A DNA stretch of 64,000 nt. It comes from Peribolospora baueri (lineage: Eukaryota; Basidiomycota; Peribolosporomycetes; Peribolosporales; Peribolosporaceae). Below are positions 1 to 62,023 of this stretch, one piece after another. How positions within the stretch are numbered: the first letter of the stretch is position 1; the number at the start of each line of letters is the position of its first letter. Under the pieces are notes generated by a model. That model ran no database searches and had not been told where the DNA came from. It was given only the letters and a program-made list of their open reading frames with translations. Location of the stretch: positions 62,001-126,000 of the forward strand of contig JAMDHS010000051.1 of the NCBI GenBank assembly GCA_029717555.1, written 5' to 3'. The position numbers were made by a program, and so were the translations under genes.

Positions 1-198
1 TAGGATAGAGACGAAGACAAAGCGGGGAAGGCAGAGCTGGAAACGTCCACCGTCTTTGTTCAATGGATCCGAGTGGCCACGGGCCTTTTGCTCGGCGAGC
101 ATGTTTCGCTGAAAAACCCAGACGGGTGATCATGTTCGTTCCAGAGTTTATATCCATGTCCGACATGGGCCGTCACCACACCGCCCCGACCCCGATCT

Positions 199-2573: not shown

Positions 2574-2898
2574 GTCGAGAAGATGGGATGGCGGCGAGAA
2601 GAATTGCGCACCGGCTCGACGACGCCGCTCGCTGGGCGTTGGAGGTGGTCGCCGTGCTATTATATACAAGCCCTTCCTTTATCTATCCTATCTCGTCCCC
2701 CCCATCACGAGGTCTTACAGCCCACCCCGCCTTCTCTCCACGTGCGCCCTAGCGCCAAACAAAAACTCCCGTCGACGGACTCGGTGAGCGGCGACCCAGC
2801 AAGGCGCCGCCCTGTCTAGAAGACAATTAGTGCTCTAACGTACACGATGGACGCCGCACCCTCGCTTCCACCCATCCAATCGCACCACACCCCACACG
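2574..2898. other. Intergenic, PUT1 promoter
   Basis: 325 bp between the PUT1 start and the mL41 stop. It should hold the PUT1 promoter and the mL41 3' end. I see no further gene. Confidence 0.5.
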
Positions 2899-3785
2899 TC
2901 ACGGCTTCTTCCCCGCCGGACCCTGCCCCGTCATCGCAGTTCCGTCCCGGTCCGCCCCCAAACGCTGCTTTTCCAGAAGGTTGGCGTAGTACTGGCCATC
3001 GACTGACCGTATTGAGAGGGGAGAAAGGAGATCAGGGCCGGCCATTTAGACTGAAAAAAAGGCAAGTCACCGAAGAAAAACCCGGCCTGCCGGAACCATA
3101 ACTCACAGCCCCGCGGTCCGTAAGGCAAGAAGTGTTCACCCGCTTGAGGGGACTTGACAGAGAGGTGCACGTATGGCTTGAGCTGATGGCCACAAGAAAA
3201 GAGGAAAGTTGAGGTGAGGAATGGGTTCCACGGAAAACCTCGGCGAAGAGGAAAGGCGACGGATGGGTGGACGGCGACAGATCGAAGGCGACATCGAATG
3301 CGAGGGATCGAAGGCGACATCGAATGTGACGGATCCAAGGCGACATTGACAGCGAGGCATGACCCAACCCACCTTGGTATCCTTCAATCCAGGCGGAACG
3401 GCAAAGTCAGTGATCCTCCTTTCATCGATCCGTCCCGTGCGCAAGTTCCACCAGCTCGACTCTCCTCCCTTCTCCACCACCTCCTTGGTCAGCCGGCGCC
3501 CGTTCCGGTCAATCGGAAAACCTTGGCGGTCCTTGAGCTCTATGCGCCTCCTCACTAGAATGTTGCCCGTTCGGGTGCCTGGATCGAAGGAGAGGAGAGC
3601 AAAGCGGAGGGAAGGGTTGTGAGCACAACCAACTGTTCGTCGTCCCTATGCACACAGCATGATCGATCGCCTTGCCTCGCCCGCACCGTGGCGCACGCAC
3701 CTTTGTAGAAGTCCTTGTTAGCCTTCTTGGACGTCAAAGGAAGTCTCGACGCCTTGCTGCATGCTGCTGCTGTCGGTCGGAACAT
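2899..3785 (-). CDS. MRPL27: Mitochondrial large-subunit ribosomal protein mL41
   Basis: Protein of the mitochondrial 54S ribosomal subunit. Four exons on the minus strand (3785-3701, 3578-3373, 3182-3107, 3002-2899) join in phase to 156 residues, close to the roughly 146 of yeast Mrpl27. The start MFRPTAAACSKASRLPLTSK is basic and precedes the conserved KKANKDFYKGTRTGN, then a stretch from RRIELKDRQGF to YVHL that includes LKPYV, the family's best landmark. The last exon was chosen because its acceptor at 3003 gives GFDGQYYANLLEKQR, a sensible tail; an earlier acceptor at 3051 would end the protein two codons on. Intron 2 holds short tandem repeats. The gene is divergent from SEC20. Confidence 0.82.
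3279..3353 (+). repeat. Short tandem repeat inside an mL41 intron
   Basis: Three imperfect units of about 25 bp sharing GATCGAAGGCGACATCGAAT lie in the second intron of the mL41 gene. They do not touch the coding exons. Confidence 0.7.
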
Positions 3786-4011
3786 GGCGCAATCTGGTTT
3801 GTAGTCTTCGTCTCTGGCAGACGCTTCTTGCCTGCTCCGACGTCGAGGACGAAGTAGCTGCGGTAAGAAAGCCGAGGTGATCGCCGCTTATCGCCGCCCG
3901 AGCGCCCCGGATCAGCGCTCGAGCCAGCCACCCAGGCGGCGGCGGTTCAACGACGTCCTCGAAGACGCTCCTCGACGGTCCTCGTAGACCTCATCGGCGG
4001 TCCTGCTGAAC
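3786..4011. promoter_or_regulatory. Bidirectional promoter region mL41 / SEC20
   Basis: 226 bp separate the divergent mL41 and SEC20 start codons, so both promoters must lie here. No TATA box stands out. Inferred from position only. Confidence 0.4.
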
Positions 4012-5408
4012 ATGCCCCCATCCATCCCCGGTCTGCCTCCAGACGCATCCTCTCATTATGCACGCCTCCATCGTCGCCTCTCGGACCTCGACTCGTATCA
4101 GGTCCCGCGACTGGGGGAGTGCATCGGTCCCACGACTTTGTTGCACCAGTTCAACGCCGAGCTGGGGGAGGATTTGAGGAGCGTGGAAGCAGAGTTGGAG
4201 GTGCGCCCGTACCTCGTCTGTCCGCGTTGAAACCTGCGGTGTGCTCATCCCTCGGTTTACTTCTCGGCTAATCTGCACAGACGTTCAAGCTCTCCGCCGA
4301 CGAACAAGAGCGACAGAGCGAGACCGATGCCGTCTTGGAGGCCGCGCGAGAACTTCAGGAGAGGTTGGCGCGGTCAGTTCGTCTTTTTTACCCTTATTTT
4401 CTTTTCCTTGCACGCTCACACATCCTATGCTCCCGCAGCGTCAAACGCGAAGCTCGCTCAGCCCTTCTGACCTCTCGTCGGGCGATCGCAGCTCGCACGG
4501 GTGACCAGCAGAGGGACGAACTGTTCAGGACTGCGGCACAGGGAAGGAAGGATGCTGGGGAGGGGAAGAGGTAAGTCGGTGAAGGCACGACGGGCGAAGA
4601 GCGGCGAGGATGAGGGGTCTCAATCGCGACCCTTTCCATCTTTTCCTCCGCGTCGCATCGCCGCAAGTACCGACGACCGACTGATGAACGCTACGGAAAA
4701 TGTCACCGAGGCTCTGCGACGCACGACGGCGCTCATGACGCAGGAGCTTGAGCGATCGAACCTGTCCACACAAATGCTGAGTGAGTGCCATTCGAACTGG
4801 CGGCGATCGGGCGCGGAGCGACACGTTCGCCTCCTTCCGGCGATGGACCGACTTGACGATGCTCACACCGCCCTTCTTCCGATCCAGGCGAGTCTACCCA
4901 AACGATGCGCTCCTTAACCACCGAATATACCACCTTTTCTGATCTCCTTACCGCCTCCAAATCCCTCATCACCGCGCTCGAGCGAGCCGACCTATTGGAC
5001 CGGTTACTCATCATGGCCGCCCTGGCATTCTTCTTGCTCGTCGTTGCGTTTGTTCTCAAGCGGAGGATCGTGGATAGAGGATTGAGGATCGCTTTCTTTT
5101 GGACAAGGTGGTTGCCTGGCGTGGGAAGGGCTGGGAAGGAGCAGGTCGGCGCTTTGACGAAGATGGGTGCACAGGGAACACTGAGTACAGCGGTCGAAGA
5201 CGTCGCTGCTTCTGTCACACAAGGGGCGCTGGGCGCGGCGCAAGAGTTAGCCGGGTCGCTTGGTGAAAGCTTGGAGTACGCGACGGGACCGGCGACCGAG
5301 GGCGGCGAGACGGGAGGAACCGTTGAGGACGAGTGGATCCACCCGGACGGCACACCTTTCGACTCTGACCGAAAGACGACGGAGCCTCTACAGCACGCTG
5401 AGCTTTGA
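4012..5408 (+). CDS. SEC20: SEC20-type SNARE, Golgi-to-ER retrograde transport
   Basis: ER t-SNARE that receives COPI vesicles with Ufe1 and the Dsl1 tether. Five exons (4012-4200, 4281-4372, 4439-4570, 4668-4780, 4888-5408) give 348 residues. The SNARE-like helix spans LMNATENVTEALRRTTALMT to LTTEYTTFSDLLTASKSLI (about residues 139-205) and is followed at once by one membrane segment, LLIMAALAFFLLVVAFVL (about 215-232), then KRR. This order defines the Sec20 domain. The roughly 115-residue lumenal tail ends in HAEL, reminiscent of the HDEL retrieval signal at the end of yeast Sec20. The gene converges on the RNase Z-like gene, with only 57 bp between their stop codons. Confidence 0.87.
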
Positions 5409-5465
5409 GGGACGATTCGGTTGTCCCAATATGTATGTACGTCGTTCATCGGAAAAGATTAAGCC

Positions 5466-7455
5466 TCAAGCACCGTCCTCCTTCGCCTCCACATCGACCT
5501 TGTCCCGTGCGGGCACCACATAGGACATCATATCGTACGCTGCCCAAGCCCTTCTATCCTCTTTGTCCCCGCCCCACGCCTTGGTCGCCTGGTCCTCGAT
5601 GCACCGCATGATCGCCAGTCGGCGCTCATCCTCCGGCGCTGCTAGGCGTGGCCTTGAGCGACCGACGGCGACGGCGCCTAGAGGCGCCCTTCCTCGATGA
5701 GGACGATTGGATAAAGGCTTGTCGCCAGCTCTCCCCTCCTCTTCGCCCTCCTCGCCAACCCCACCATCCTCCATCATCCCCTCTTCCTCCGTCCATCTCA
5801 GATGCGACCCATTCCCACCCTCCCCTCGCTCATCCATAGCGACTTCCCGCGCCTTCTCCCGCTCCATCTCCCGCTCCATCTCCCGCTCCATCTCCCGCTC
5901 TATCTCCCTCCGCTCCCTCTTCAGCTCCATCTCCCTCCGCTCCCTCTTCAGCTCCATCTCCCTCCGCTCCCTCTCCACCAGCCACCCAGGCGGAGCAAGG
6001 TACCTCACCGAAAAATGATTCAAGAGCAACATCCGAGCTCCCACCCGTCGCGCAAACTCGCCCGCCACCTCGGGCGTCGAATGCCCGCGCGACGCCGCCT
6101 TTTGTCGCACCGCTTCCTCCGATATTGTACCGGAGACATGCGGCGGGGCCGGGCGTGAAGGATGTGGATGCTTGCCCCGGCCCCGGCCGCCGGACGGCGG
6201 ATTCGGGATGGGTCGTTCGACCTCGGGTGGGATGGCGGCGTTCGTACACTCGTGTACAAGTACGTCCGCTCCCATTGCCAACTCTTCGATCGGCCCGGTA
6301 GCGTCGCTGCAGTCACCTAGCACGACCACCTTGCGCCCCGGTATATCCAACAGAGGAGGCTCGATCTTCGTCCCGTCCGGCAGCTCGACGGTCTCCCTCT
6401 TCCTCGTCACATTTGACAGTAGCATGCGCGGATTCCGGATCCCTCTTTCCGACAAGAGTCGATCCGCGTTAGCGTCTAGCAGAGGAAGGAGGGGGCGCGT
6501 GTCGAGCGGAGAGGCGCGCCAAGGTTCGGTGAACACGTATCCGAGGCATGGCACGCGGTGCACGATGGGCGCGGCCGAGATGGAGACGCCGTTGGGGAGG
6601 GTTACAAAGTCAGTCCAGCGAGGATGATCGGGTGACGCATAAATGTCTCGACCTGGCAACTCGTTCTCATGCAGAGGCAGGACGGGCAATACGCGGTTGC
6701 GGCCGTCCGGCGTGGGCACGCGCACGGACTCAGGAGCTTCGTCGGGCGACGAGGGAGAAGGATAAGGGGCATCGGTGGAGAAGAGCAGCTCGTGGACCGT
6801 GTATTTGCCGGCCAATTGGCAGTACGTCAGCGAGAGCGTCGTACGCAAGAGAGCGCGAAGACCCGAGGGGCCGAAGATCTCTATCCGGGGCTGGCAGAAG
6901 GAAAGGCAGGGTGCCCATCATCGTATCGGTCGCCGGGGTCGGTCGGTCAGCCGGCAGTCTGAGACGGGCTAGATGCGCCGTGCGAGAGACAGGGCAAGCT
7001 CACCTTCTCCGTCTCGCTTTCTCCCGGCGCGGCCTTTGCACCGTTCATAATGTCCGTCAGGAAAGGGACGATGCCAAGAGTGTGGTCCTGATGCAAGTGG
7101 GTTACGAGGATGGTGTGAAGGTTCGAGAGCCTGTTCCGCGAGCGTCGAAACTGGTTCTGCGTCGATTCACCACAGTCGCTGTCGACAGATGAGAGAGCGT
7201 GTATGAGCCCATATACCAGCCAGAGCGAGCCGACCACAATAAGTACAAGGCACGCACACCATGACGAGATCAGAGTTGTGCTTAACCAGCAAGCTCGAAT
7301 AGTTCCTGTTGCCGACGAGCAGAAAAGGAGGATCAGTCGGCCGTGGCGTCCGCATTAAGGCGAAGTTGTGGCTCGGACGCTTCTTCACGCACTCACCTCG
7401 TCGCCGAGGGCGCCGAGCTGGTGCCCAGAAACTGGACCTCTATGTGGTTCACCAT
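5466..7455 (-). CDS. RNase Z-like metallo-beta-lactamase hydrolase
   Basis: Zinc phosphodiesterase of the RNase Z fold, which in known members removes tRNA 3' trailers. Four exons (7455-7397, 7305-7258, 7178-7004, 6890-5466) give 568 residues. The N-terminus reads FLGTSSAPSATRNYSSLLV, the usual GTxxxxPSxTRN opening. Metal motifs follow: THLHQDHTLG (HxHxDH), LGDCSDA, LVHECTN, then RGHSTPEVAGEFA and LLLNHFSVRY. The long last exon also carries a C-terminal extension of some 170 residues, beginning with a highly charged helix of repeated RERREMELK and EREM units (about residues 400-435) that is not part of the enzyme core. It is single-domain, like ELAC1-type enzymes, rather than the long two-lobe Trz1 form. 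The true substrate in this organism is not known. Confidence 0.82.
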
Positions 7456-7559: not shown

Positions 7560-8065
7560 AAATACCCGAGTTGCCGCTGGCTGAAGACGCATCGCATCGT
7601 GCTTCGACAGGTAATTAACAACACCCGCTCCCACTCGGACCAACACCCTACTTTTTTCTCTAACAGGATGTAATGCTGGGTGCCACACCAAGTTATTCAC
7701 TTGGGACGGCATTCGTGTGTTGGACGGCGGACGGCCGAGTATGGAGCGGCATTTGGAGGGTTACCACTCGTGACCTCCGTGTCCGCCGTGCCTTCCTGTT
7801 AGTCAGCTGCTTTCCTGTGTGAGAATAACGTGGTATGTATTCATCAGGATGGAGCGTGGGCACAATGGTAATACACAAGGGTCTGGGGCGCAAGTCGGAC
7901 CAAATTCCCACGGTATGGCCACCGTCTGTGGCGAGGTTGTATACACCTCTATCTTTGAGTACAAAAGAACGCACCTGACTCGTTGTGATTACGATAAGGG
8001 AGGAGCTTTCGTGTCTAACTCCTTCTCCTCCTCCTCCTCGTTATCAGACGCGTCATCAGACGATT
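7560..8065 (+). repeat. Partial copy A of an unknown gene-family repeat
   Basis: Matches the 3' part of copies B and C further on: the CCGCTGGCT block, a conserved intron starting GTAATTAAC, a Cys-containing exon end (GCHTKLFTWDGIRV) and a downstream tail ending near TCGTTATCAGAC. It starts just upstream of the RNase Z-like gene. Only the 3' region is present and the reading frame before the intron differs from copy B, so I take it as a fragment. Confidence 0.6.
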
Positions 8066-8828: not shown

Positions 8829-8915
8829 AAAAACCGATGTCGTCGAGTTGGATAGTGTAAGCACGTTTCGTTGTTGCGACCAGGAACCCCGTTTGGATGC
8901 TAGTATGAATATCAG

Positions 8916-9340
8916 CTCATTTGGCTTCGCTTTACGCAGATTTGTGATCGACCTCGATGACGCCGCTGTCGCCGAGCGCATTGTAAATGGACACTTAGCT
9001 TTGAAGCAGCACATCGTTAGCTTGATCATGTCTAATGCCGCCCACGACGTCCAACATCTTTTTGGCTTGGCGTTCCTTACGGATTCGAGGCACGGAGTGG
9101 CAGAGTTCCTCACATCCGGCATGCCCGAGTGCCGCTGGCTAAAGACACATCGTCCTTCGACGGGTAATTAACCACTCCCAGTCGGACCAATGTTGTATGC
9201 AATTCTAAACACCCTCTTATTTTTCTCTAACAGGCTGTCATGGCGGGTGCCATGCCAAGCTTTTTACTTGGTACGGCATCCGTGTAGGCAACGGGCTCCC
9301 GACGATAGAGCGGAATCTGGAGGCTCATCAGAGGTGGTGA
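8916..9340 (+). pseudogene. Unknown gene family, copy B (3' half preserved)
   Basis: I do not recognise the family. Two exons, 8916-9163 and 9234-9340, join in phase across an intron that begins GTAATTAAC. They encode about 117 residues starting SFGFALRRFVIDLDDAAVAE, with ALKQHIVSLIMSN in the middle and a Cys/His-rich end CHGGCHAKLFTWYG. The 5' exons seen in copy C (coding from a TATA-proximal start) are not recognisable in front of it, so the copy looks 5'-truncated. The Cys-x3-Cys-His end might bind metal, but that is only a guess. Confidence 0.45.
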
Positions 9341-9639
9341 TGTCCGTGCATGCACCTGACAATGATGTGTCTCTTTAGGTAACTGCTTTCCATCGTCGAT
9401 TGCAAAGGAATGCGCCTAAATTAGTTCTAATTACGACAAGGGAGTGAGCTTTCACTAAACGCCTCTTCAGAGGACGGGTCGGACTGCGACGACGACGACT
9501 CGTTATCAGACAATTCACTCTCCCTTGTCGTAATCAGAACTATTCAGGCGCATTCCTTTGCACTCGACGACAGGAAAGGAGCTGCGTAAGAGGCACATCA
9601 TCGCCAGCGTCACCACCTCTGGCAACCCTCCAGATTCCG

Positions 9640-10349
9640 TTCTATCGTCGGGTGCCCGTCGCCTACACGGATGCCGTACCAAGCTTGGTATGGCACCCCC
9701 CGTGACAGTCTTTGGAGAAAAAATAAGAAGGGTGTTTAGCATTGGTCTGAGTGGGAGCGGGTGTTGTTAATTACCTGGCGAAGGACGATGTGTCCTTAGC
9801 CAGCGGCACTCGGGCATGCCGGATGTGGAGGGACTGCCCTAGGTGTAGCCGAGCCGACTCTGTGAGGAACGCCAAGCCGAAAAGATTCGGACGCCCTTGC
9901 CGGCATTGGTCATGATCAAGCCGACGATGTGCTGCTTCAAAGCAGCACGGTCAGGGAAGTGCCCATTTGCAATGCGCTCGGTGACAACGGCATCATCGAG
10001 TTCTATCCAAATTCTGCGCAAAGCGAAGCCAAATGAGCTGTCATTCAAACTAGCATCCAAAAGGGGGTCCCTGGTCGCAACAACGAAATGTGCTTACACC
10101 ATCCAGCTCGACATTAAGTCAATGTTGAAAGCTTTCTCGAGTGCGAGGATGAGCTTGTTCACGTGAGAAGAGGAAGTGAGTTTGTCCCGTGCCCGACGGA
10201 AACAACGCTTCAGTTTATTATCCTGTACGGAAAAGAAGATGGGAAGGAAGGAAGGGAAGCGCGCGGGGTAGGCATACATGGTCAGAAATAACGGTACGAT
10301 AGAAGGATGAGGCATTTGGGCGAAAAGAAAGGTTTTTCTTCTCAACCAT
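9640..10349 (-). pseudogene. Unknown gene family, copy C (5' half preserved)
   Basis: I do not recognise the family. From the start at 10349, exons 10349-10278, 10222-10098 and 10037 onward join in phase over introns beginning GTATGC and GTAAGC. The product begins MVEKKNLSFRPNASSFYRTV, has a basic helix KLKRCFRRARDKL, a stretch LILALEKAFNIDLMSSWM, then the conserved SFGFALRRIWIELDDAV segment. Compared with copy B the frame is disturbed in the later part of the third exon, before the conserved GTAATTAAC intron at 9774-9710, so the Cys-rich end is out of register. No signal peptide or membrane segment is visible. Best read as a decaying or strongly diverged copy; expression is untested. Confidence 0.45.
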
Positions 10350-10967: not shown

Positions 10968-11592
10968 CGGGACCTGTGCCCCTCCGAACTTTGTGCAAAC
11001 GATCTGGGAGGTTAGACTGAAGATTGAGCACAACGATCAGCACAGTTTGGAGGCGGACGCTTCGCAGATCGATCCCAAGAAGCTTGCAGGACTTCGAGAG
11101 ATGCTGAATGGAGTTATTGAGGTGAGCTCGGGTCGGGCTCGAAGTTTAGGCGTGCTCCTCTATTAATAGCGATTTTTTTTTGCCTTGATCACGCGAACAG
11201 ATGAGCGAGAAGTGCCCTATATGTTTCGACACTCTGAAGGAGCCCGTGAGTTCAATTCAGGATGGGTTTTCGCCTGATCCACCAGGATCCTCCGTGCTCA
11301 TCCTGCGCACTTTGACCAGGTGCGCTCACAAGTTCTGCCCCGCCTGCATCGAAGAAGTGATCCGCGTCCAGTCGAAGGTGTGTACGGAGGCTGAGGACAA
11401 GAGTCTGCTGGTATGCATTTCACCGGCTGACATGCTTGCTTCTCATCGCCCTCCAAGTGCCCTATGGACCGCGGACGCCAATCTGCGAGTTCGTTAATAA
11501 GCCTCGCGCCTCTCTCGCCCAACGAGGCAAAAGCCGACGACGGCAGCGAAACGGGTGAAGAGGTGAAAAGCGTTGCAACTCGGAGCAACTGA
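10968..11592 (+). pseudogene. RING-finger fragment of a RAD5/RAD16-like SNF2 protein
   Basis: Three exons (about 10968-11121, 11201-11377, 11458-11592) read in phase: a helical lead-in WEVRLKIEHNDQHSLEADAS, then LREMLNGVIE, then a C3HC4-type RING with CPICFDTLKEP, RCAHKFCPACIEEVI and CPMDRG. A helical linker running into a RING is the layout found inside the helicase region of Rad5/HLTF and Rad16 proteins. No SNF2 motors are present on either side, and the frame stops 45 codons after the last exon begins. The last metal-ligand position is Asp rather than Cys. I read it as a remnant, though a small stand-alone RING gene cannot be excluded. Confidence 0.5.
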
Positions 11593-12269
11593 AATGAGAC
11601 CCGCCCAGAATCCCTTTCATTATGAGGACTCGATGAAAAAGGTTTCGTCGTAGATTTGAATCATTATAACGGAACACATGTAAGACCTCGATCGAGCGAA
11701 TGTCCTTAAACGATACCTTGCCCTGTGAGAAGAGAGAAATGCGGAGAAATGTGATTCTCAGCGTTGGACGGTGGGGGGGAATGGTCCGCGTCCAAGAAGG
11801 GGGGCCAGAGACGAGGGATGGCATTCCTCACCCGGGGCAAAGTCGAGTCGGCGGATGGCGTTTACCGTGGCTATAGTGGAAGCTGCTTGCTGCTCCTTTT
11901 TAGTTTTTTGTGATGTGATGTTACCAATTGCTGGAGTTTTGGTTTTCTTTGCTTCAAGGTCAGTTCCGGTGGCACGGGTTGCCCCATCTTCTCCGCCAGG
12001 AAATTTGCTCCATTTGGCCGGGGTCTCTAGCCTTTTTCGCCGTGCTCGAGAATGACACCCCTCGTCAAAGGGGAGACCGCGGCCAAGATGACACCCCCTG
12101 TCAAAAGAGGGTGACCACAAAACTAACTTCCACTGCTGGTCCCCTTGTGAGGCCTTCTGAGCAGCAAGTTCCTCCTCCAGCTCCTTGATGCCGTTCGAGT
12201 ATTTGGTAGTTTATCGGACCAGCTGTGCGCCTAGCCCTGAATCGGCGGGACTCGATTGGTTCAGGACCC
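11593..12269. other. No supported gene; junction zone beside the PKC fragment
   Basis: Both strands have open frames (for example 11758-12120 on the minus strand) but no recognisable family. A minus-strand stretch near 12100-12180 reads GIKELEEELAAQKASQGDQQ, a possible coiled-coil exon of unknown origin. Two near-identical 25-bp units built on TGACACCCC(C/T) and GTCAAA sit at about 12052-12110. Confidence 0.4.
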
Positions 12270-13574
12270 TTAATGGTGAATAGATAGCATTTCCCACTTG
12301 AAGAAGTACCCCGAATGCCCTGGAGGCCCTCCGTGTGTGGAGCCTGGATAGTCAGGTCGGGGCATTCCTGAGCCCTCCATCTTGTCTGCCGAAACCCATC
12401 CGGATGCACCCAACTCGGTCTCGACCTTCTTGCGACGCATCTCCTCTGCGATGTTGGAGATGCGCACCCAAAGCATACCGATAGGCGTCGGGCGGTCTCC
12501 AGACTTGTCGTATACAGTAAGCTCGATCTCGTTGGCCTTGTCGATGTCGATCGAAAATGACTCGTCGAGCCATCTATCGTTCCGACTAGCCTTGGTTCTG
12601 GCCTTGACCGCATCTTCCACTTTGACGATGACAAAGGTCTCCGGGCCTCGGGAGAATCGTGAACTTGCGGCGTGGTCGACATCTTTCACGGCATGGATTC
12701 GCATGGTTAAGAGACCGGTTAGCGGCTTGCGCATGTTCGGACTGCTGAGCGATTCGTCTATTTGGGGGTCAGTTACTCGTGGTTATACCATTCGACATGA
12801 CATCCATACCATCCGGCGCATCAGTAGACTCAATGTCGACGTGGAGATCCTCATATCGCTTGAGAGCCTGCTTCAGGAGCTGGATCTTCTGGTTACTCTC
12901 GATGCGACGGCCCTCGGCATCCGCACGGCTCTTCCTGTCGCCTTCATCCTGATACAAGCGAACCATCTTCTCAATACCAGCCTTGTATTGTTTCTCGACG
13001 CTCAGCTTGAACTCGAGCTGGGACAGCATGAGCTGAATCTTGGGGCCGAGGTAGGGCGTGTCATATTTGATCAAATCTGCAATTCAGCCAGTCATGTTAG
13101 CAAATAACCCCTTCTCCATAATTTCCATGGAATGCAGGTAAATAACGCACCCAACTTTGTATAATTCGGCCTCGCCTTGGGGATAGGAGCATAAGGCCGC
13201 GGATCCGAGTATGGCGCGCCAGAAGGCATACTGCCCGTGCTTCCCTGAGGGTACCCATAGCCATCGCCGTATTTCCCACCGGCACCGGGATAGTCCTTCG
13301 GGGGCGGCGCGGGAGCGTTCCCACCGGCACCGGGCCCGCGGCGCTGGCCTGTAGGCGAGCCGCCACCTTCCTGTTCCATGCGACGGATCTGCGGCTCCTG
13401 CATCTTCTCCTCGAGGTAGGCAATATTTTTCCAGCCATCGCGGATGTTCGCGTCGACTCGCTGCTGCACGAGCGGGTTGTCGGTCGACTGCCGCATGTTG
13501 CTCGCCGCGGCGATCAGGGCCTTCTCCCGCTCGATCTTTTTATAGACCGCGGCAATAGGGTCGTCGCTGTCCAT
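12270..13574 (-). CDS. PKC1: Protein kinase C, N-terminal fragment only (HR1-C2)
   Basis: The beginning of a fungal PKC, the Rho1 effector at the top of the cell-wall integrity pathway. Exons 13574-13151, 13076-12810 and 12757 onward join in phase. [20 protein letters not shown] opens the first HR1 coiled coil; [20 protein letters not shown] opens the second; [20 protein letters not shown] to [18 protein letters not shown] is the C2-like domain, ending [10 protein letters not shown]. The frame then stops at 12270 about 30 residues later. The C1 zinc fingers and kinase domain, some 700 residues, are absent from the window. The wording matches my memory of Aspergillus/Penicillium PkcA far better than basidiomycete Pkc1. 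It can have no kinase activity as it stands. Confidence 0.85.
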
Positions 13575-14340
13575 GGTGGTGGTGGTGTTGTTTTTTTGGG
13601 GTGGTGGTGGTGAGGGTAGGAAGGGATGTGGTTGAAGCGAAAGTGGTTATCGCGGAGTCTGTGTTTCTCCGTCTCTCGCTCGTGTTGTTGACAGTGTGGA
13701 GGGGGAAAAGGTGAGACACCCGGGAAACTTTCGAGGGAGTGGGCAGGCGGTGGTGGGAGTGTGGGATCCAAGTGTTTCAGGCGTCAAGGGCGCCGTTACC
13801 GCCTGGCAGATGAGATCATCAGCGATGGAGATGAAGATGATGGAGAGAAAAAGAGAGAGGGAAGAAGAGAAGAGAAGAGAGAGAGAAAGGGAGGGGGAAG
13901 TGTAGTGTGGCCTGGCTATCGATAAGCCCCGACACGAAAACACAAAGTCACCGACAACTAAACTGAACTCGCGAGGATATCCCTTGCCGCGTGCATGGAG
14001 GGGTGGTCTTGTAGGATCTCCAGATATCTAGCCGAGTCTAGCAGTGCTGTGCATTCTTGATGCGAGCGAACAGTCTGTTGAGATACTACGGACTCAATAC
14101 GACACTCGGTGGGTAACTAAACACACCTCGACTCGTGATGTCACCAAGGCTAGACCCGACAATGCCATTATATTCATGATTGTTGGCTAGGGACTATGGA
14201 GTAATTCGATTTACCGGACAGACCTACATGCAGAGACCCTGAATGCCATATGCGAGCCTGCCCTCACCTAACTATGCCCACAACATATTGTACCGAAAGG
14301 GTATGTTGGCGAGCGACACGACAACCACCACAACCACCCC
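13575..14340. other. Intergenic between PKC fragment and MFS gene
   Basis: 766 bp upstream of the PKC start. It contains GGTGGT-type and GAGA-rich low-complexity tracts close to the start, as in a 5' leader. No gene seen. Confidence 0.5.
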
Positions 14341-15825
14341 TTACTCGGATCGCTTGGAAATCTTTGGCAGCAGAAGCCAACTGGTAGCCATCACTCCGTA
14401 CAATCCAATACAGATCGGGTGCAGGACCATAGTGCCCACATTCTGCGCCAGCAGACCCGTCAAGAATGGCGACACGGCACCGCCGCTGCTGCCGAGGGCG
14501 CTGACAAAGCTCAGGCTGGACATGTGCATGCTCCGGGGGAGCAGCTTAGTAAAAACCGTCGTGGCGCAGGGATAGACGGGCCCCAGGAGCAGGCCGAGGA
14601 TGGCGACGGAGACGGCATCGCCGATCACGTTGGGGATGAGCCAGGCCATCAGCTGGAAGGCGACGGCGGCAGCCACCATGATCACGACGGCGATCTTCTC
14701 GCCAATTTTGTGTGCCGGGTGCGTCAACACGAACCGGCCGGCCGTGATGCCTGCCCAGAAACCCGCGCTCACGTAGCCGACGTGCTTCGGGTCGCCGTGG
14801 CGGTAGCTGATTAGGAAGGAAACGACCCAGCCGGAGACGGAGACCTCGGCGCCTTGGTAGGCGAAGATGAATAGCGCCCCGAGCAGCGTGGTGCCGTTCT
14901 TGATGGATTTCAGGACGACCTGCAGCCGAGTCAGAGGCTCGCCATTGGCACCTTCGGGACGGGAGGCTGTGGGCTGAAGTGCCATCTGCGGCTCGATTGG
15001 GGTGTCTTCTTCGTAGTTGTAGAATGACCACGCGGAAAAGAGCAGATTGACTGCGGCGATGGCCAGGGCGATACCGTAGAAGAACGACCAGCGAATCCCG
15101 CTCGACACCATGGCCGTTGCAAACAACGGCGCCACGGTGCCTCCAATCCCATAGGAGCCATGCATACACCCCAGTGCCGTAGTGAAATTAGAGAGATTGG
15201 CACAGAAGACATTGCTGAGAGCCAGGTTGAAGGCCTGGCCGAAGCCCAACAAGAGGAAACTGGCCACCACTGCAGGGAAGGGCGGCTGGCAGACGATAAT
15301 CACGTATGCAGTCACGGAAAGGGACAGAGCCAGCGCATAACTTCGCGAGCGGCCGAGTTTGCTCTCGATGGTGTGTGTGAGCGGTGCGGCGAGGATAAAG
15401 CCTAGGGCATTGGTCACGAAGATGAGCGCGACCACGGCATATCCGATGCTGTAGTGCCGTTCCATGTATGGAATCAGAGCACCGGGGGCACTGTCATTCA
15501 TGCCATTCCCGAACTGGACCAGACAGCAGCTCAGTAGCCGCCATTTGGTCTTTGGTGGCGGTGCAGTGCGGTCAGCAGCAAATGTGGTGGTTGTATCTTC
15601 GTCTTGGATGGGTGTTGGTAGACGGTTCTCCAGCACGCTGGGAGTTGGCGTCGAAGACGACTGTTCTTGAGTCACTCGTGCGGAAGTGTTTGGTTGAAGT
15701 TCATTCAACTCATAGTCTGATGGCGCTGGGGCAGCACCTTCCTTGTCCTTGCGTACTGCAGCTGGTGGACTGGCCAGTTGGGCAGAGCTCTCGATTTCGA
15801 AGAGGGTGCCGAGAGAGGCGGCCAT
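14341..15825 (-). CDS. Major facilitator superfamily transporter, intronless
   Basis: Plasma- or internal-membrane transporter of 494 residues in one exon. A hydrophilic N-terminal tail of about 95 residues rich in Ser, Thr and Pro precedes twelve hydrophobic segments. FGNGMNDSAPGALIPYMERH at the first helix, SKLGRSRSYALAL in the loop between helices 2 and 3, LGFGQAFNLALSN, and a central loop at about residues 275-305 fit the FHS/fucose-permease-like branch, which in fungi includes Bsc6-type proteins. The second half has YQGAEVSVSGWVVSFL and GFWAGITAGRFVLTHPAHKI. The substrate cannot be read from sequence. The gene is divergent from the eIF1AD-like gene, 196 bp apart. Confidence 0.85.
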   Translation of the reverse strand: MAASLGTLFEIESSAQLASPPAAVRKDKEGAAPAPSDYELNELQPNTSARVTQEQSSSTPTPSVLENRLPTPIQDEDTTTTFAADRTAPPPKTKWRLLSCCLVQFGNGMNDSAPGALIPYMERHYSIGYAVVALIFVTNALGFILAAPLTHTIESKLGRSRSYALALSLSVTAYVIIVCQPPFPAVVASFLLLGFGQAFNLALSNVFCANLSNFTTALGCMHGSYGIGGTVAPLFATAMVSSGIRWSFFYGIALAIAAVNLLFSAWSFYNYEEDTPIEPQMALQPTASRPEGANGEPLTRLQVVLKSIKNGTTLLGALFIFAYQGAEVSVSGWVVSFLISYRHGDPKHVGYVSAGFWAGITAGRFVLTHPAHKIGEKIAVVIMVAAAVAFQLMAWLIPNVIGDAVSVAILGLLLGPVYPCATTVFTKLLPRSMHMSSLSFVSALGSSGGAVSPFLTGLLAQNVGTMVLHPICIGLYGVMATSWLLLPKISKRSE

Positions 15826-16021
15826 TCTGTCGAAATATATGTTTCTGGATTGATGTTGAAGTTCATTTCTAGACAGGAATCCAGATTCCGAGCCCTAATT
15901 CATGGTTTGTCGTCGATCTGGGGATTCCTTTTGCCCCACCGATCTACGGATTTTTTTTTCTTCCATTATTATTTTACTATCCACGATATTCTTTACGACA
16001 TTATTCTCGATATTATTCACG

Positions 16022-16516
16022 ATGGGCCCCCCGCGTCGCAAAGTGCTAGCCACAGCTGAAGAAACCCTCACACCCCCAGACTCCCTAGCCACCAACCAGC
16101 AGATCGCGCGCGCGATCAAGGCAACCGGCAACAACATCTACCTAGTCGAGCAGCCCTGCAAAACACAGTGTCTTGTGGAGCTGCCCGGGCGCTTCCGGTC
16201 AACCATCTGGATCAAACGCGGCTCGTACGTCGTGATCGATACCACGGCGCAGGATGAGCGCGACAACAAGATTGGCGGGGAGATTGTGAATATTGTGCGC
16301 GATGAGAAGGCGTGGCGGAAGGCGGCTTTTTGGTATTCCCTCCCCCCTTCCATTCAATTCAATTTCTTGTGGAGGATCATATATTGACAAATATTTGTCT
16401 TTTTCAGGCCGAAGGAGTTTGTGAAGCAGCCCGTCGTCGCTGCAATTGACTCGGACGATGAAGACGAATCGCGAGTCGGCCAGATGCCGCCCTCTGACGA
16501 TGAGTCGGATGCGTGA
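16022..16516 (+). CDS. eIF1A-domain (S1/OB) protein, eIF1AD-like
   Basis: Small nucleic-acid-binding protein with an S1-like OB fold related to translation factor eIF1A; the animal relative eIF1AD is nuclear and assists late 40S maturation. Two exons, 16022-16332 and 16408-16516, give 139 residues. MGPPRRKVLATAEETLTPPD is the usual start; GNNIYLVE, LVELPGRFRSTIWIKRGSYV and GGEIVNIVRDEKAWRK make the OB fold; the tail is acidic (DSDDEDES and SDDESDA). An in-frame ATG upstream at 15902 would add a hydrophobic stretch and is less likely. The gene converges on ALG3, with 70 bp between their stops. Confidence 0.85.
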
Positions 16517-16586
16517 ATCTAATATCTACGGATATGTTTCACCAGAGCAACGGTTTGAGATGTCTGGAATATGCCACTGGGTTTTT

Positions 16587-17940
16587 TTATTGGATGCGCT
16601 CTTTCCGAGGACCACTATTATCTACCTCGCTCGACCCATTCAACCACACCCCCAACACCTGGACACCGAGCGACAACACTACAACCGCCGAACTCGCGTT
16701 GCTGCTGGGGTAAACATTCCAAGCCCACTCCTGCAGTGCCCAGACGACATACACAAGAACCGGGTGGAGGCCTGTCCGCCAAAGCAGAAACGGGGTGGCC
16801 CATGACAAATAGGCGAAGAACTGGTAGTGCAGGGACCGGGCACAGAGCAAGCCGATGGCTAGCGAGCTCAGTGTGACGGTCATAATGAAGGATTTGGAGA
16901 GGGCGATTGGTTGCTGGCGGCCTTGGAGAAGGCCCTGCGCCCAGCGGAACACATTATTGGTGCCGGAGGGTCTTACCCAGGTGGCGGAGAAGATAGCCAG
17001 CAGGGAGACGTGGAGGACCAGCAAGGCTAGAGAGAATTCTTTCGAGAGAAATGTGTCTTCGCCGACGAATCGCCAATTCACCGTCCATTTGAACAAGAAT
17101 TGTCTGGAGAGCTCGAACGCGCGCGAGAGATAGCCTGTAGGATTGGCTTGGAGGAATGGCACCGCGAGCAGGACCTGCAATAATGCCTCATCAGTCATTT
17201 GTACACCTAGACATATTTCCGCACTACACCAACCTGGATCAGAACTGCCATAGTCCCCAACGCGACACTGCGCGTCAACCCCAGACTGAGCAGCGTGAGG
17301 ACCGCAATAGCTGGCACGAGCAGAACCAGCGTCATCTTGACCGCCACGCCGGCAGACCACACCGCAACGCCAGCGGTCCACTTGCGCTTCTGACAGAGAT
17401 AGATAGCCAACCACATAGCGAACGCGGCGACACCATCATTGAACAAGCGCAGCACGAAGATGCTGTGCAGGCGTTTGGACAGGACGAGCAGCGGGAACAG
17501 GTACGGCGGCGCACCGGAGTGTCTGTAGCAACCCAACACGACGACCAGAGTCGCCAGATACAGCCCCGCGAACAGAATCTGGCCAACCAGGATATCGCGC
17601 CCTTCATCGGTGAGATGGTAGAGGAGCGTGTAGATGTAGACGTGGGCGGCGGGGTAGACGAGTGGGCCGGTCGAGCCTTTGATCAGGGTGTAGTCGCGTT
17701 CTCCAGAGATGTAGAGCGAGACCTGCTGCATGTAGGTTGTCCAGTCAATCTCGGTGTCTAGAGTGCTGTGGTCAGTTTGGTTGAACGGGACATTTGTTGT
17801 TGTCGAGATGCGGGCTCACAGGAGATCTTCCAGATGACCAGCGCGCACAGGGCTGCATCGCCGAGGAGCAGCAGAGGGGCCATCCATTTTGTATGTCGTG
17901 GATTGGTGAGGATGTCGACTAGGAGGTCGGGCAGGGCCAT
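16587..17940 (-). CDS. ALG3: Dol-P-Man:Man5GlcNAc2-PP-Dol alpha-1,3-mannosyltransferase
   Basis: ER membrane enzyme that adds the first lumenal mannose to the N-glycan precursor. Exons 17940-17820, 17757-17234 and 17174-16587 give 410 residues. Family landmarks: [20 protein letters not shown] near residue 41, [71 protein letters not shown] and [19 protein letters not shown]. About ten hydrophobic segments are spread along the chain. Length and order match the family, so the gene looks intact, unlike the PKC at the other end of the island. Confidence 0.93.
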
Positions 17941-18891
17941 GGCGAGGTGGCTAGAGGGAGGTATATGAGGTCCCGCCCCCTCACATCTCCTTTAGTATAG
18001 GTTACGTAAGATCCTTAGTCGCCATTGGTTGACGTGAAGTATGAAAGGGCGGAGTTAGAACTACCTTACAAGTCAGGACCTCCTAGGGAGTGGACATGAA
18101 TATATAATATAATAATAACCATAATCATAATAAACACTGCTGATCCGGCCAACCCCGCGGATCCCGCTGAGGTACGATCTCTATCTTGTGTCATCTCGGC
18201 GTTGAGCAGGTACTGCCTTGCTTCCCTCGTGGAATAGGTTTTGGCGCATTACTCGCACTTGAACTTCTGGTCTAGCAAAGGGGTGCCTTTGCAGATCTTT
18301 CGGTGTCTAGTTAGGGCAGCAAACCAGAGTGATGTGTATGGGCATTGTCCATTGCCACAGTGAAAGACAAATTGGGTCGATGCGTCCTTACTCGTACCCT
18401 CGAGTGCAGCGCTATTCTTGAGCAAATTTGAATTCCACCCACAGGGATCCTTGGATAGACGCGGATTGGTGGGATGGAATCCACAGGCCCAAATCGAGAC
18501 AAGGGGCTGAAATGGAAGAGAACTAGACAGATGGAAGATCCCACTGCTGGCAGCCGTATCGGGACCAGGCTGGCAGTGGTTTGACGGATGAAAACAGTGA
18601 TACTATTCAGAAAGTGATGGGAATTGATCCAGTTGAATTGGTAATGAGGATGGATGCTAAAACGACGTCAATGTTTACTACAAAGGGTAACGATTTCAAA
18701 GGAAAACGAGTACAACAATATCATCACTACAAAGCGATAGCGTTTACGAGACTCGTGGAAACGAACAAACCGTGAGCTTTACAAGATTTCGCGTGAAGGA
18801 GTAATACAAACAATGCCGCCAACTGCAGTTGCTCCGCCAACTCCGCCAAAACCCGCATATCATCGCACTCACAACGATAGTAAATAAGTCG
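17941..18891. other. Intergenic, AT-richer; likely right edge of the island
   Basis: 950 bp between ALG3 and the first tRNA. It includes a run of AATATA/AATAATAA around 18100-18140 and one open AT-rich frame at 18581-18775. No recognisable gene. Confidence 0.45.
18581..18775 (+). CDS. Unrecognised small open frame with AT-rich codons
   Basis: 64 codons beginning MTDENSDTIQKVMGIDPVEL and ending AFTRLVETNKP. The codons favour A and T at the third position, unlike every gene around it. The frame stops at TGA inside CCGTGAGC, which could equally be a 5' splice site, so this might be one exon of a longer, lost gene. It resembles no family I can name. No promoter or acceptor site is evident. Confidence 0.22.
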   Translation: MTDENSDTIQKVMGIDPVELVMRMDAKTTSMFTTKGNDFKGKRVQQYHHYKAIAFTRLVETNKP

Positions 18892-18988
18892 GACCCTATA
18901 GCTCAGTTGGTAGAGCGTACGACTCCAGATTGCGCCTCGGATTCAGGAGTGCATCGTAAGGTCATCCGTTCAAGTCGGGTTGGGGTCA
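18892..18988 (+). tRNA. tRNA-Trp (CCA), with intron
   Basis: Acceptor stem GACCCTA pairs with TGGGGTC; the D arm is GCTCAGTTGGTAGAGC; the anticodon stem TACGA/TCGTA closes a loop carrying CCA at 18925-18927; the T arm is ATCCG TTCAAGT CGGGT. A 24-nt intron at 18929-18952 sits one base after the anticodon, the standard place. The mature length is 73. A poly-T terminator follows. Confidence 0.93.
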
Positions 18989-19070
18989 TTTTTTCTTCTT
19001 TTTTTCTTTCCTCCAAGCTGAAGAGGGAACGAGGGACTGGTGCTGCGGTCACCTAATTCTTTTGTCACGT

Positions 19071-19167
19071 GACCCTATAGCTCAGTTGGTAGAGCGTACG
19101 ACTCCAGATTCCGCCTCGGATTCAGGAGTGCATCGTAAGGTCATCTGTTCAAGTCGGGTTGGGGTCA
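19071..19167 (+). tRNA. tRNA-Trp (CCA), second tandem copy
   Basis: Same fold as the copy 179 bp upstream, with anticodon CCA at 19104-19106 and an intron at 19108-19131. Two substitutions are seen: one in the intron, and one in the T stem that keeps pairing as G-T. A T-run follows. Confidence 0.92.
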
Positions 19168-19297
19168 TTTTTTTTTCTTTTTTCCTTTCCTCCAAGCTGA
19201 AGAGAGGGAACGAGGGACTGGCGCTGCGGTCACCTAATTCTTTTGTCACGTGCAAAGCTGCTGTAATCATCACGTATGGAAGCGCCACTATTGTCAC

Positions 19298-19324
19298 TCG
19301 TCCGTTCAAGTCGGGCTGGGGTCA
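19298..19324 (+). pseudogene. tRNA-Trp 3'-end fragment
   Basis: CGTCCGTTCAAGTCGGGCTGGGGTCA with a T-run reproduces the T arm, acceptor 3' strand and terminator of the two full copies. The 5' half is missing. Confidence 0.7.
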
Positions 19325-19369
19325 TTTTTTTCTGCGCCTTTTTTTTTCCCTGCCGAAGGCTCGTTGTCG

Positions 19370-20935
19370 CCATAATAGTAGCTGGTCTTATCGTTCATTT
19401 ATACGCGTTGATCTCCCCGCCCGTTCTCGCCTTCCCTGACTGGACTCGGCCCTTTATCTCATACGTCGACTCCTCCCTCACCGGAGTCGCCATCGTCCTC
19501 CACCAAGCTTTCCCGAACCCTCGACGCGCCGACGCACAAGCCCTTCCCGTCTTTTCCGTCGACGGCGCCGCAGCACGCCGACGAAGACATACGCCCGTGT
19601 GAAAAACGTCAACGACTTCTCCCTATCCGACGATGGCCTCCTGTGCCACTTCGACCCCCTCGAAGGAGAGCCAAATTTTTCCACCCTCGCCTTTCCGACC
19701 TCGTCCGTCAGTACCTGGCCCATTGCCCGACGTGACGTGCCTCCGGATCAAGGTCCCCCGGCGACTTCCGCCCGGCGCGCATCATCACTGATAAGGGCTC
19801 CTTCTTCATGAGTGTCTTCTTCACTTAGGTGATGAAACGCCTGGGCACGGAGATTCCCCGACGTCCCTGCATCATCAACAGGCTGATCCCGCCGAGCGGC
19901 ACATCCAGACGGCCGAGGCAGTTCTGCGCGGATTCGCTTCAGACTACCCGCGCCTCTGGTCCTCTTTTCTTCCCCTCGCCGAGCTCGCTATCAACTCGCT
20001 ATTAACTCATCCGTCAACACCGGTCGGTCCCCTTTCGACCTGCTCTACACGACACACTCCGCCCTCGAGGATCATGTCCTCCACACTGCTGATGGTGTCA
20101 GGAAGAGCCAGGGCAGCGCGAGGTGGAGTGTGTCGTGTAGAGCAGGTCGAAAGGGGACCGATCGGTGGCCTCGTTGACGGCGGGATTCATCGCGAGCTCA
20201 GCGAGGGGAATGAAAGATGACCAAGAAAGATGACAGCCGTCTTCAAGGAGGTCGTCCATGCTCGAGGCCCGGGACACGATCGACTCGGAGGCCATCCGCA
20301 ACCAAACCGCGCTGACGTGCAACTGCCAACACGACGACCTGATCCAGACCGTCGGCCTTGAGTTCCGTCAGCTTCTCGAGTCGAGGCCCAGATCGGTGCA
20401 ACCTTTCTTCGACTTTGTCGACAACGACATTTGGCGTCGGTTCCTCGGCGAGGGCTCGGCCGAAGCGCGTTCCAGATCGTCAAGCTCTTCTTCGACGACC
20501 TCCTCGGCCTCAAAGTCCTTCACACCGTCGCCCTCTCCATCAGCTCCATCTCTGCCTTCGTCTATCACCAAGACGCGGTCATCCCACGACCGACGAGGAC
20601 ATCTTCTCTCTGCCCTCCGCCGCTCCCTTCCAGTTCCTTTTCATGTGTCCAGGCCGACGCATCTCGTCCCCCTTTCGCTCAGACTTCGCCTCTTTCTCTT
20701 TATATTTCTCCCTCACCCTCTGTTTCCGTCCATTTCATTTTCATGCGTCCGGGTCGACGCATCTTTTAAGGGGGAGGATGCCACGGTACCTTGCCCAGAT
20801 CACCATGGAATCCAGCCTTCTGCCACCATCTTCACCTGAAGTATCCTTACACTGGGGGTTGTTTACGGCCTTGCGCCTCTTCCCTCGGTCTTCCTCTACA
20901 TGTTGAAGCATGCCCTATGGTGATCATGACTATAA
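19370..20935 (+). mobile_element. Ty3/gypsy LTR retrotransposon fossil
   Basis: Broken remains of a Ty3/gypsy-type element. A reverse transcriptase/RNase H junction piece on the plus strand (FPDWTRPFISYVDSSLTGVA) is followed by integrase pieces, one on the plus strand near 19980-20070 and a second, inverted copy near 20100-20240. A purine tract AAGGGGGAGGATG at about 20768-20780, directly before a TG start, looks like the polypurine tract and the edge of a 3' LTR. There are many breaks and the pieces are rearranged, so it is old and inactive. It lies close downstream of the tRNA genes. Confidence 0.7.
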
Positions 20936-61919: not shown

Positions 61920-62023
61920 TGCAGGAAGATTCAATGTATCGAAAGTGCAAGTAGATGCGGCGTGAGATACAAAATGCAAACACATTAACCAAACCGATGC
62001 ATTGAGTGTAGGGACACCTGCAT

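What the first reader, a model, noticed from the sequence alone, without database searches (positions are those of the whole stretch)
12300..17990. Ascomycete-like gene island inside a basidiomycete-type locus
Four neighbouring genes (PKC N-terminus, MFS, eIF1AD-like, ALG3) have zero to two introns each, while genes on both sides have four to twenty-six. Their protein wording, above all the PKC start [20 protein letters not shown] and the eIF1AD start MGPPRRKVLATAEETLTPPD, fits Eurotiales-type fungi as I know them. Either a multi-gene horizontal transfer or a chimeric assembly would explain this, and the two mean very different things.
Basis: partly seen in the sequence, partly recalled or inferred. 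Interest (0 to 1): 0.85.

Follow-up and report, generated by a model that had tools for sequence, protein, structure and literature searches.

The report
Aspergillus-type chromosome fragment in basidiomycete contig
A stretch of about 6.5 to 7 kb inside this basidiomycete-type contig looks like a broken-off piece of an Aspergillus-type chromosome (part of a protein kinase C gene plus three whole neighbours), which is either a contamination chimera in the assembly or a very recent DNA transfer; only sequencing reads or PCR can tell which.

Summary
The block is in the sequence and looks foreign. It holds a protein kinase C gene cut off after its C2 domain, an intact MFS transporter, an intact eIF1AD-like gene and an intact ALG3. 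The strongest new evidence is gene order: in Aspergillus niger ALG3 is An18g02360 and pkcA is An18g02400, four tags apart. The three most deviant of 63 two-kb windows in dinucleotide signature lie in the block. Codon usage separates it only weakly (rank 42 of 330). Around it lies a patchwork of repeats and gene fragments. The truncated PKC frame is undamaged, so any transfer should be recent. I favour an assembly chimera with Eurotiales DNA (0.55) over a very recent real insertion (0.37). No reads, fungal database or host genome were available, so this is not settled, and similarity to Aspergillus sequence was not measured.

The parts
12270..13574 (-). PKC N-terminal fragment: exons 13574-13151, 13076-12810, 12757-12270; 392 codons, two HR1 repeats and a C2 domain. 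Pfam support ends near 12,432; the codons from there to the stop at 12,270 were judged by eye only. C1 domains and kinase not found
   Evidence: Pfam HR1 and C2; spliced model; motif search of the window
14341..15825 (-). MFS transporter, 494 aa, no intron, intact
   Evidence: Pfam MFS_1 E 6.5e-34; frame open
16022..16516 (+). eIF1AD-like gene, 139 aa, exons 16022-16332 and 16408-16516
   Evidence: Pfam eIF-1a E 2.9e-17; PDB chain named EIF1AD (6zxf_j) E 1.8e-12; model; end of exon 2 read
16587..17940 (-). ALG3 alpha-1,3-mannosyltransferase, 410 aa, exons 17940-17820, 17757-17234, 17174-16587
   Evidence: Pfam ALG3 E 8.8e-58 and 2.9e-73; model; PDB 9s6r, named as this enzyme, E 8.3e-35 with the first 215 residues
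17941..18891 (.). further stretch of block-like composition (GC 0.466 over 17,991-18,890) up to the first tRNA; holds a frame with one C2HC-finger-like motif on the minus strand (18602-18249)
   Evidence: no Pfam family reaches its curated score
18892..19252 (+). right border: two tandem tRNA genes (18892-18988 and 19071-19167; anticodon CCA, i.e. Trp, read by eye) in units spaced 179 bases
   Evidence: Rfam tRNA 54.2 and 52.3 bits; direct repeats
11862..12432 (.). zone that should hold the left border: Pfam-supported PKC coding ends near 12,432; composition places the edge at 11,862 or 12,199
8842..10112 (.). left flank: nested inverted repeats (five pairs, arms 53-114 nt, 85-93% complementary)
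11189..11497 (+). left flank: RING-finger frame, apparently a gene fragment
   Evidence: Pfam zf-C3HC4 E 1.4e-09
19270..19602 (+). right flank: possible retroelement RNase H piece
   Evidence: Pfam RT_RNaseH_2 E 3.3e-05, 24.3 bits, below that family's cut-off of 29.8
20234..20836 (+). right flank: fragment weakly resembling the RFX BCD domain
   Evidence: Pfam BCD_RFX E 1.8e-04, 21.5 bits, below the cut-off of 24

Best explanation
From an edge somewhere in 11,862-12,432 to about 18,890 the sequence is one broken piece of a Eurotiales (Aspergillus-type) chromosome, the pkcA-MFS-eIF1AD-ALG3 neighbourhood, joined on both sides to basidiomycete-type DNA. It is cut inside pkcA on the left and in intergenic DNA beyond ALG3 on the right. 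That the block is foreign I hold at about 0.95 (the sum of the three foreign readings). That the joins were made by the assembly, from contaminating Eurotiales DNA entering a repeat-rich stretch, is my preferred reading at 0.55 and is inferred, not shown.
For: Gene order: A. niger ALG3 is An18g02360 and pkcA An18g02400, while here ALG3 and PKC lie about 3 kb apart with two genes between. Dinucleotide distance to 20.9-50.5 kb is 0.124 for the block against 0.048 for the control stretch 1-7,000, and the three most deviant of 63 two-kb windows lie in the block. With Markov models trained without the tested stretch, 19 of 26 block windows score as block-like against 3 of 208 windows of 1-7,000 and 20.9-56 kb. 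Frames and splice sites are undamaged even in the PKC part, which lacks its kinase: simulated neutral change of 5% leaves that frame open in 13% of runs without indels and 0.15% with indels at a tenth of the substitution rate (2,000 runs each), so the join should be young. Precedent for a seamless chimera: a ~4-kb E. coli insertion inside the C. elegans X chromosome (PMC7218494, passages).
Against: There is no N anywhere in the window, and a chimera needs two false joins; PMC7218494 says contamination is mostly short contigs, contig flanks or parts flanked by Ns, and PMC10831095 calls chimeric contigs likely rare. The right border falls at the start of a tRNA gene, and the neighbourhood is already a patchwork, as expected of a real insertion site. 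Codon usage does not separate the block at the level of whole genes (rank 42 of 330). Outside the 208 control windows, some windows at 7.6-8.0, 11.8-12.4 and 56.2-62.2 kb also score above zero. Similarity to Aspergillus sequence was not measured.
Confidence: 0.55

Rival explanations
1. Very recent real insertion: a linear fragment of Eurotiales DNA, from a neighbour, prey or partner fungus, was captured by end joining at a break next to a tRNA repeat in a repeat-rich part of the host chromosome. The PKC part would be dead, while ALG3, eIF1AD and the MFS gene arrive whole with their own promoters and introns.
For: No N at either edge; the right edge by composition (18,914 in 5 of 9 settings) lies 23 bases into a tRNA gene; the surroundings are a patchwork of repeats and gene fragments; reported Ascomycota-to-Basidiomycota transfers are used as a test set, with Armillaria genomes, in PMC10831095 (passages).
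Against: Three of the four genes are of ordinary kinds that a host should already have (inference), with no obvious benefit; no shared end sequence longer than 10 nt was found between the edge zones (chance level not computed, words under 9 nt not sought, so a short target-site duplication is not excluded); the absence of decay demands great recency.
Confidence: 0.37
2. Native basidiomycete genes that happen to be intron-poor and adjacent, so the island is only apparent.
For: GC3 and pooled codon usage overlap with flanking genes; GC is low over a wider region; some flanking genes also have long stop-free stretches.
Against: The pkcA-ALG3 neighbourhood matches A. niger; single codons differ (CTG among Leu 59/159 against 47/231, p 3e-4; AGA+AGG among Arg 7/71 against 57/195, p 0.001; uncorrected, seven contrasts chosen after looking); the dinucleotide break; PKC would be a truncated native gene.
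Confidence: 0.05
3. Old transfer kept by selection, with the block maintained because one of the three whole genes is used.
For: The three whole genes are intact.
Against: The PKC part, which cannot make a kinase, is equally intact, which neutral decay would not allow for long.
Confidence: 0.03

Closest known systems
Aspergillus niger An18g02360-An18g02400 neighbourhood (ALG3 ... pkcA)
   Same: Same two end genes close together (PMC1894978 and PMC3554566 for ALG3, PMC7761569 for pkcA; passages seen)
   Different: I could not see which genes carry the three tags between, nor compare sequence; here pkcA is cut after C2
E. coli segment in the C. elegans reference X chromosome (PMC7218494, passages)
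   Same: A ~4-kb foreign stretch joined into a chromosome sequence, judged there to be contamination
   Different: There the donor matches perfectly and another assembly lacks the segment; neither could be tested here
Ascomycota-to-Basidiomycota transfers reported for Armillaria (test set in PMC10831095, passages)
   Same: Same direction between phyla
   Different: The passages give gene counts only; nothing I saw shows a contiguous, undecayed, syntenic block

Membership tests
Aspergillus-type pkcA-ALG3 chromosomal block | ALG3 and pkcA near neighbours, as in A. niger | tested here: met
   Tags An18g02360 and An18g02400; about 3 kb apart in the window
Aspergillus-type pkcA-ALG3 chromosomal block | Eurotiales branch in protein trees, high DNA identity | not testable with these tools
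   No fungal database; 4 of 4 protein scans of viral and prokaryote contigs empty; megablast of phages and plasmids empty
Fungal protein kinase C | HR1 and C2 regulatory domains | tested here: met
   sub-domains of fungal PKC from PMC4546635 (passages)
Fungal protein kinase C | C1A/C1B domains and kinase domain | tested here: not met
   No motif in six frames of the window (limited sensitivity); none in five left-flank frames by Pfam; the A. fumigatus protein is 1,106 aa against 392 codons here
Contamination chimera | Joins not supported by reads, depth change, other contaminant contigs | not testable with these tools
   No reads, no whole genome held
Contamination chimera | N gaps at the edges (common, not required) | tested here: not met
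   No N in the 64,000 bases
Horizontally transferred segment | Foreign composition between host-like flanks on both sides | tested here: met
   (5 of 9 segmentation settings)
Horizontally transferred segment | Joins present in independent isolates or reads | not testable with these tools
   No such data
Transposon-borne insertion | Terminal repeats or target-site duplication at the two edges | tested here: inconclusive
   Only 9-10 nt words shared between 11,700-12,600 and 17,850-19,400; shorter words not sought and the left edge is known only to within about 570 bases

The most novel reading that the evidence does not exclude
A basidiomycete chromosome has very recently captured a 6.5-7 kb random fragment of an Aspergillus-type chromosome at a tRNA repeat, caught before decay, showing that raw intron-bearing DNA moves between phyla and not only selected gene clusters.
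Probability: 0.35. Interest if true: 0.75.

Novelty: new member of a known kind. Interest (0 to 1): 0.38.

Why it matters
If the joins are real, this is a freshly captured piece of another phylum's chromosome, including a dead gene fragment, which would let the mechanism of DNA uptake between fungi be read from its breakpoints. If they are not, the record carries three Aspergillus-type genes under a basidiomycete name, and they could keep appearing as false horizontal transfers in gene trees.

Tried and rejected
Codon usage as the main discriminator: rejected as weak. The four block genes rank only 42 of 330 possible groupings of 11 gene stretches, the strongest groupings being driven by the high-GC3 stretches GT21 and KRE6. 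A run with a wrong ALG3 splice site gave rank 86 of 330, and the leave-one-gene-out likelihoods (also with a wrong ALG3, 38 codons) did not separate the groups: PKC and MFS scored slightly host-like, and three of seven host stretches slightly block-like. Host genes were stop-free stretches trimmed by hand and may contain non-coding codons.

Shared ends or a transposon around the block: only 9-10 nt words. ARAGORN (bacterial setting) found no tRNA, Rfam two. Relatives in other collections: 2 scans of viral contigs and 2 of genome contigs matched patterns but gave no relative; plasmids and phages by megablast of 12,000-20,900: none. Other Aspergillus tags: four Afu5g neighbours of pkcA, 0 papers; A. 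nidulans AN0104 and AN0105 only in papers unrelated by title, AN0103 in one paper on phosphatases that I did not open, AN0106 is PkcA (PMC3591445, passages); alg3 with Afu5g1, 0 papers; pkcA with alg3, one review, not opened. So the gene order is confirmed in one species only. Searches for earlier reports of such transfers gave listings in which I opened nothing new; I make no claim that the case is absent from print. A second composition outlier at 57-62 kb holds frames with weak SPO22/TPR matches below the cut-offs, so I take it for a host gene. I considered calling the RING fragment an intron-dense piece of a helicase gene and dropped it: the splice phases do not work out, and only the RING is supported. 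An integrase piece that I thought to see near 19,900-20,070 has no Pfam support.
Full report
What is there. The stretch 12,270-17,940 holds four genes. On the minus strand, a protein kinase C gene starts at 13,574 and runs through two HR1 repeats and a C2 domain (Pfam E 3.1e-16, 9.8e-22, 3.4e-07). Its three exons join in frame to 392 codons. Pfam support ends near 12,432; the last 50 or so codons before the stop at 12,270 are judged by eye only. Fungal PKC also has two C1 domains and a kinase, and the A. fumigatus protein has 1,106 residues (PMC4546635, passages). A motif search in six frames found no C1, HRD or DFG motif in the window. Its sensitivity is limited, since it also missed the RING fragment at 11.2 kb, but five left-flank frames given to Pfam showed no such domain either. 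Next come an intronless 494-residue MFS transporter (minus), a 139-residue eIF1AD-like gene (plus, one intron) and a complete 410-residue ALG3 (minus, two introns).

Is it foreign? Gene order is the best evidence. In A. niger, ALG3 is An18g02360 (PMC1894978, table passage; PMC3554566, table passage) and pkcA is An18g02400 (PMC7761569, table passage). I looked these tags up because I recalled the neighbourhood; the papers confirm both ends. Like look-ups for A. fumigatus and A. nidulans brought no paper naming the neighbours, so this rests on one species. With tags in steps of ten, three tags lie between, against two genes here; which genes they are I could not see. Gene order is not expected to survive between Ascomycota and Basidiomycota (general knowledge, not tested), so the match points to a single block from an Aspergillus-like genome.

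Composition agrees. The symmetrised dinucleotide signature of the block differs from that of 20.9-50.5 kb by 0.124, while the control stretch 1-7,000 differs by 0.048. Of 63 two-kb windows the three most deviant lie in the block; the fourth, at 59-61 kb, lies in what I take for a host gene. With third-order Markov models trained without the tested stretch, 19 of 26 block windows score as block-like, against 3 of 208 windows of 1-7,000 and 20.9-56 kb; some windows outside these controls, at 7.6-8.0, 11.8-12.4 and 56.2-62.2 kb, also score above zero. A two-state segmentation returned a single segment ending at 18,914 in 5 of 9 settings, with the left edge at 12,199 (2 settings) or 11,862 (3 settings). 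In the other 4 settings it returned wider low-GC segments, including 7.0-7.6 to 19.4 kb and parts of 50-64 kb.

Some codons differ (AGA+AGG 7 of 71 Arg against 57 of 195; CTG 59 of 159 Leu against 47 of 231; ATA 0 of 77 Ile against 8 of 82; uncorrected contrasts chosen after looking), but GC3 lies within the range of seven flanking gene stretches, and the block ranks only 42 of 330 among possible groupings of four out of eleven. The intron contrast is also softer than stated: KRE6, a GT21-type gene and POP1 have stop-free stretches of 742, 496 and 395 codons.

Where it ends. On the right, block-like composition continues through an AT-rich stretch to the first of two tandem tRNA genes at 18,892 (Rfam; the Trp anticodon CCA is my reading). 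Beyond lie a possible retroelement RNase H piece and a fragment weakly resembling the RFX BCD domain (both below the curated cut-offs). On the left, beyond an edge zone of 11,862-12,432, lie a RING-finger fragment and nested inverted repeats. The block therefore sits in a patchwork of fragments. The edge zones share no word longer than 10 nt. That gives no sign of a transposon carrying the block, though words under 9 nt were not sought and the left edge is known only roughly.

Age. The PKC part cannot make a kinase, so it should decay if it has sat in the host genome for long. Simulated neutral change leaves its frame open in 42% of runs at 2% divergence without indels and in 8% with indels at a tenth of the substitution rate; at 5% the figures are 13% and 0.15% (2,000 runs each). 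The junction is therefore recent or artificial. A selected role for the HR1-C2 part would weaken this argument.

Chimera or transfer? For a chimera: mostly ordinary housekeeping cargo, breaks with no visible logic, repeat-rich surroundings, undecayed DNA, and known seamless contaminant inserts even in a reference genome (C. elegans X, PMC7218494, passages). Against: no N in the window, two false joins needed, chimeric contigs held to be likely rare (PMC10831095, passages), and a right edge that coincides with a tRNA gene inside an already broken-up region. I put 0.55 on a chimera, 0.37 on a very recent real insertion, 0.05 on native genes and 0.03 on an old, selected transfer.

Limits. No whole genome is held for the window, no reads are available, and no fungal sequence collection could be searched; 4 of 4 protein scans in viral and prokaryote contigs and 2 of 2 DNA searches in phages and plasmids were empty, which is uninformative about fungi. 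The statement that the PKC and eIF1AD starts read like Eurotiales agrees with my own recollection but was not tested.

Noticed in passing
18892-19252: Tandem duplication of a unit of about 180 bases carrying an intron-containing tRNA gene (anticodon read by eye as CCA, Trp); the 134-nt core of the second copy is 97% identical, and by eye the 3' end of a third partial copy appears near 19,295.
   Followed up: partly
8842-10112 (with a related arm at 7595-7643): Nested inverted repeats with arms 53-114 nt and 85-93% complementary, suggesting two copies of an element in opposite orientation.
   Followed up: no
20018-20167: Short 46-nt inverted repeat, 96% complementary, in sequence that looks retroelement-like by eye (no Pfam support), beside a fragment weakly resembling the RFX BCD domain.
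   Followed up: no
18602-18249 (minus): A 117-codon frame with one C2HC-finger-like motif in the AT-rich stretch beyond ALG3, followed by a stop; no Pfam family reaches its curated score.
   Followed up: partly
57000-62000: Most deviant dinucleotide signature outside the block; a frame there gives weak SPO22/ZIP4 and TPR matches below the cut-offs, so probably a host meiosis-type gene.
   Followed up: partly
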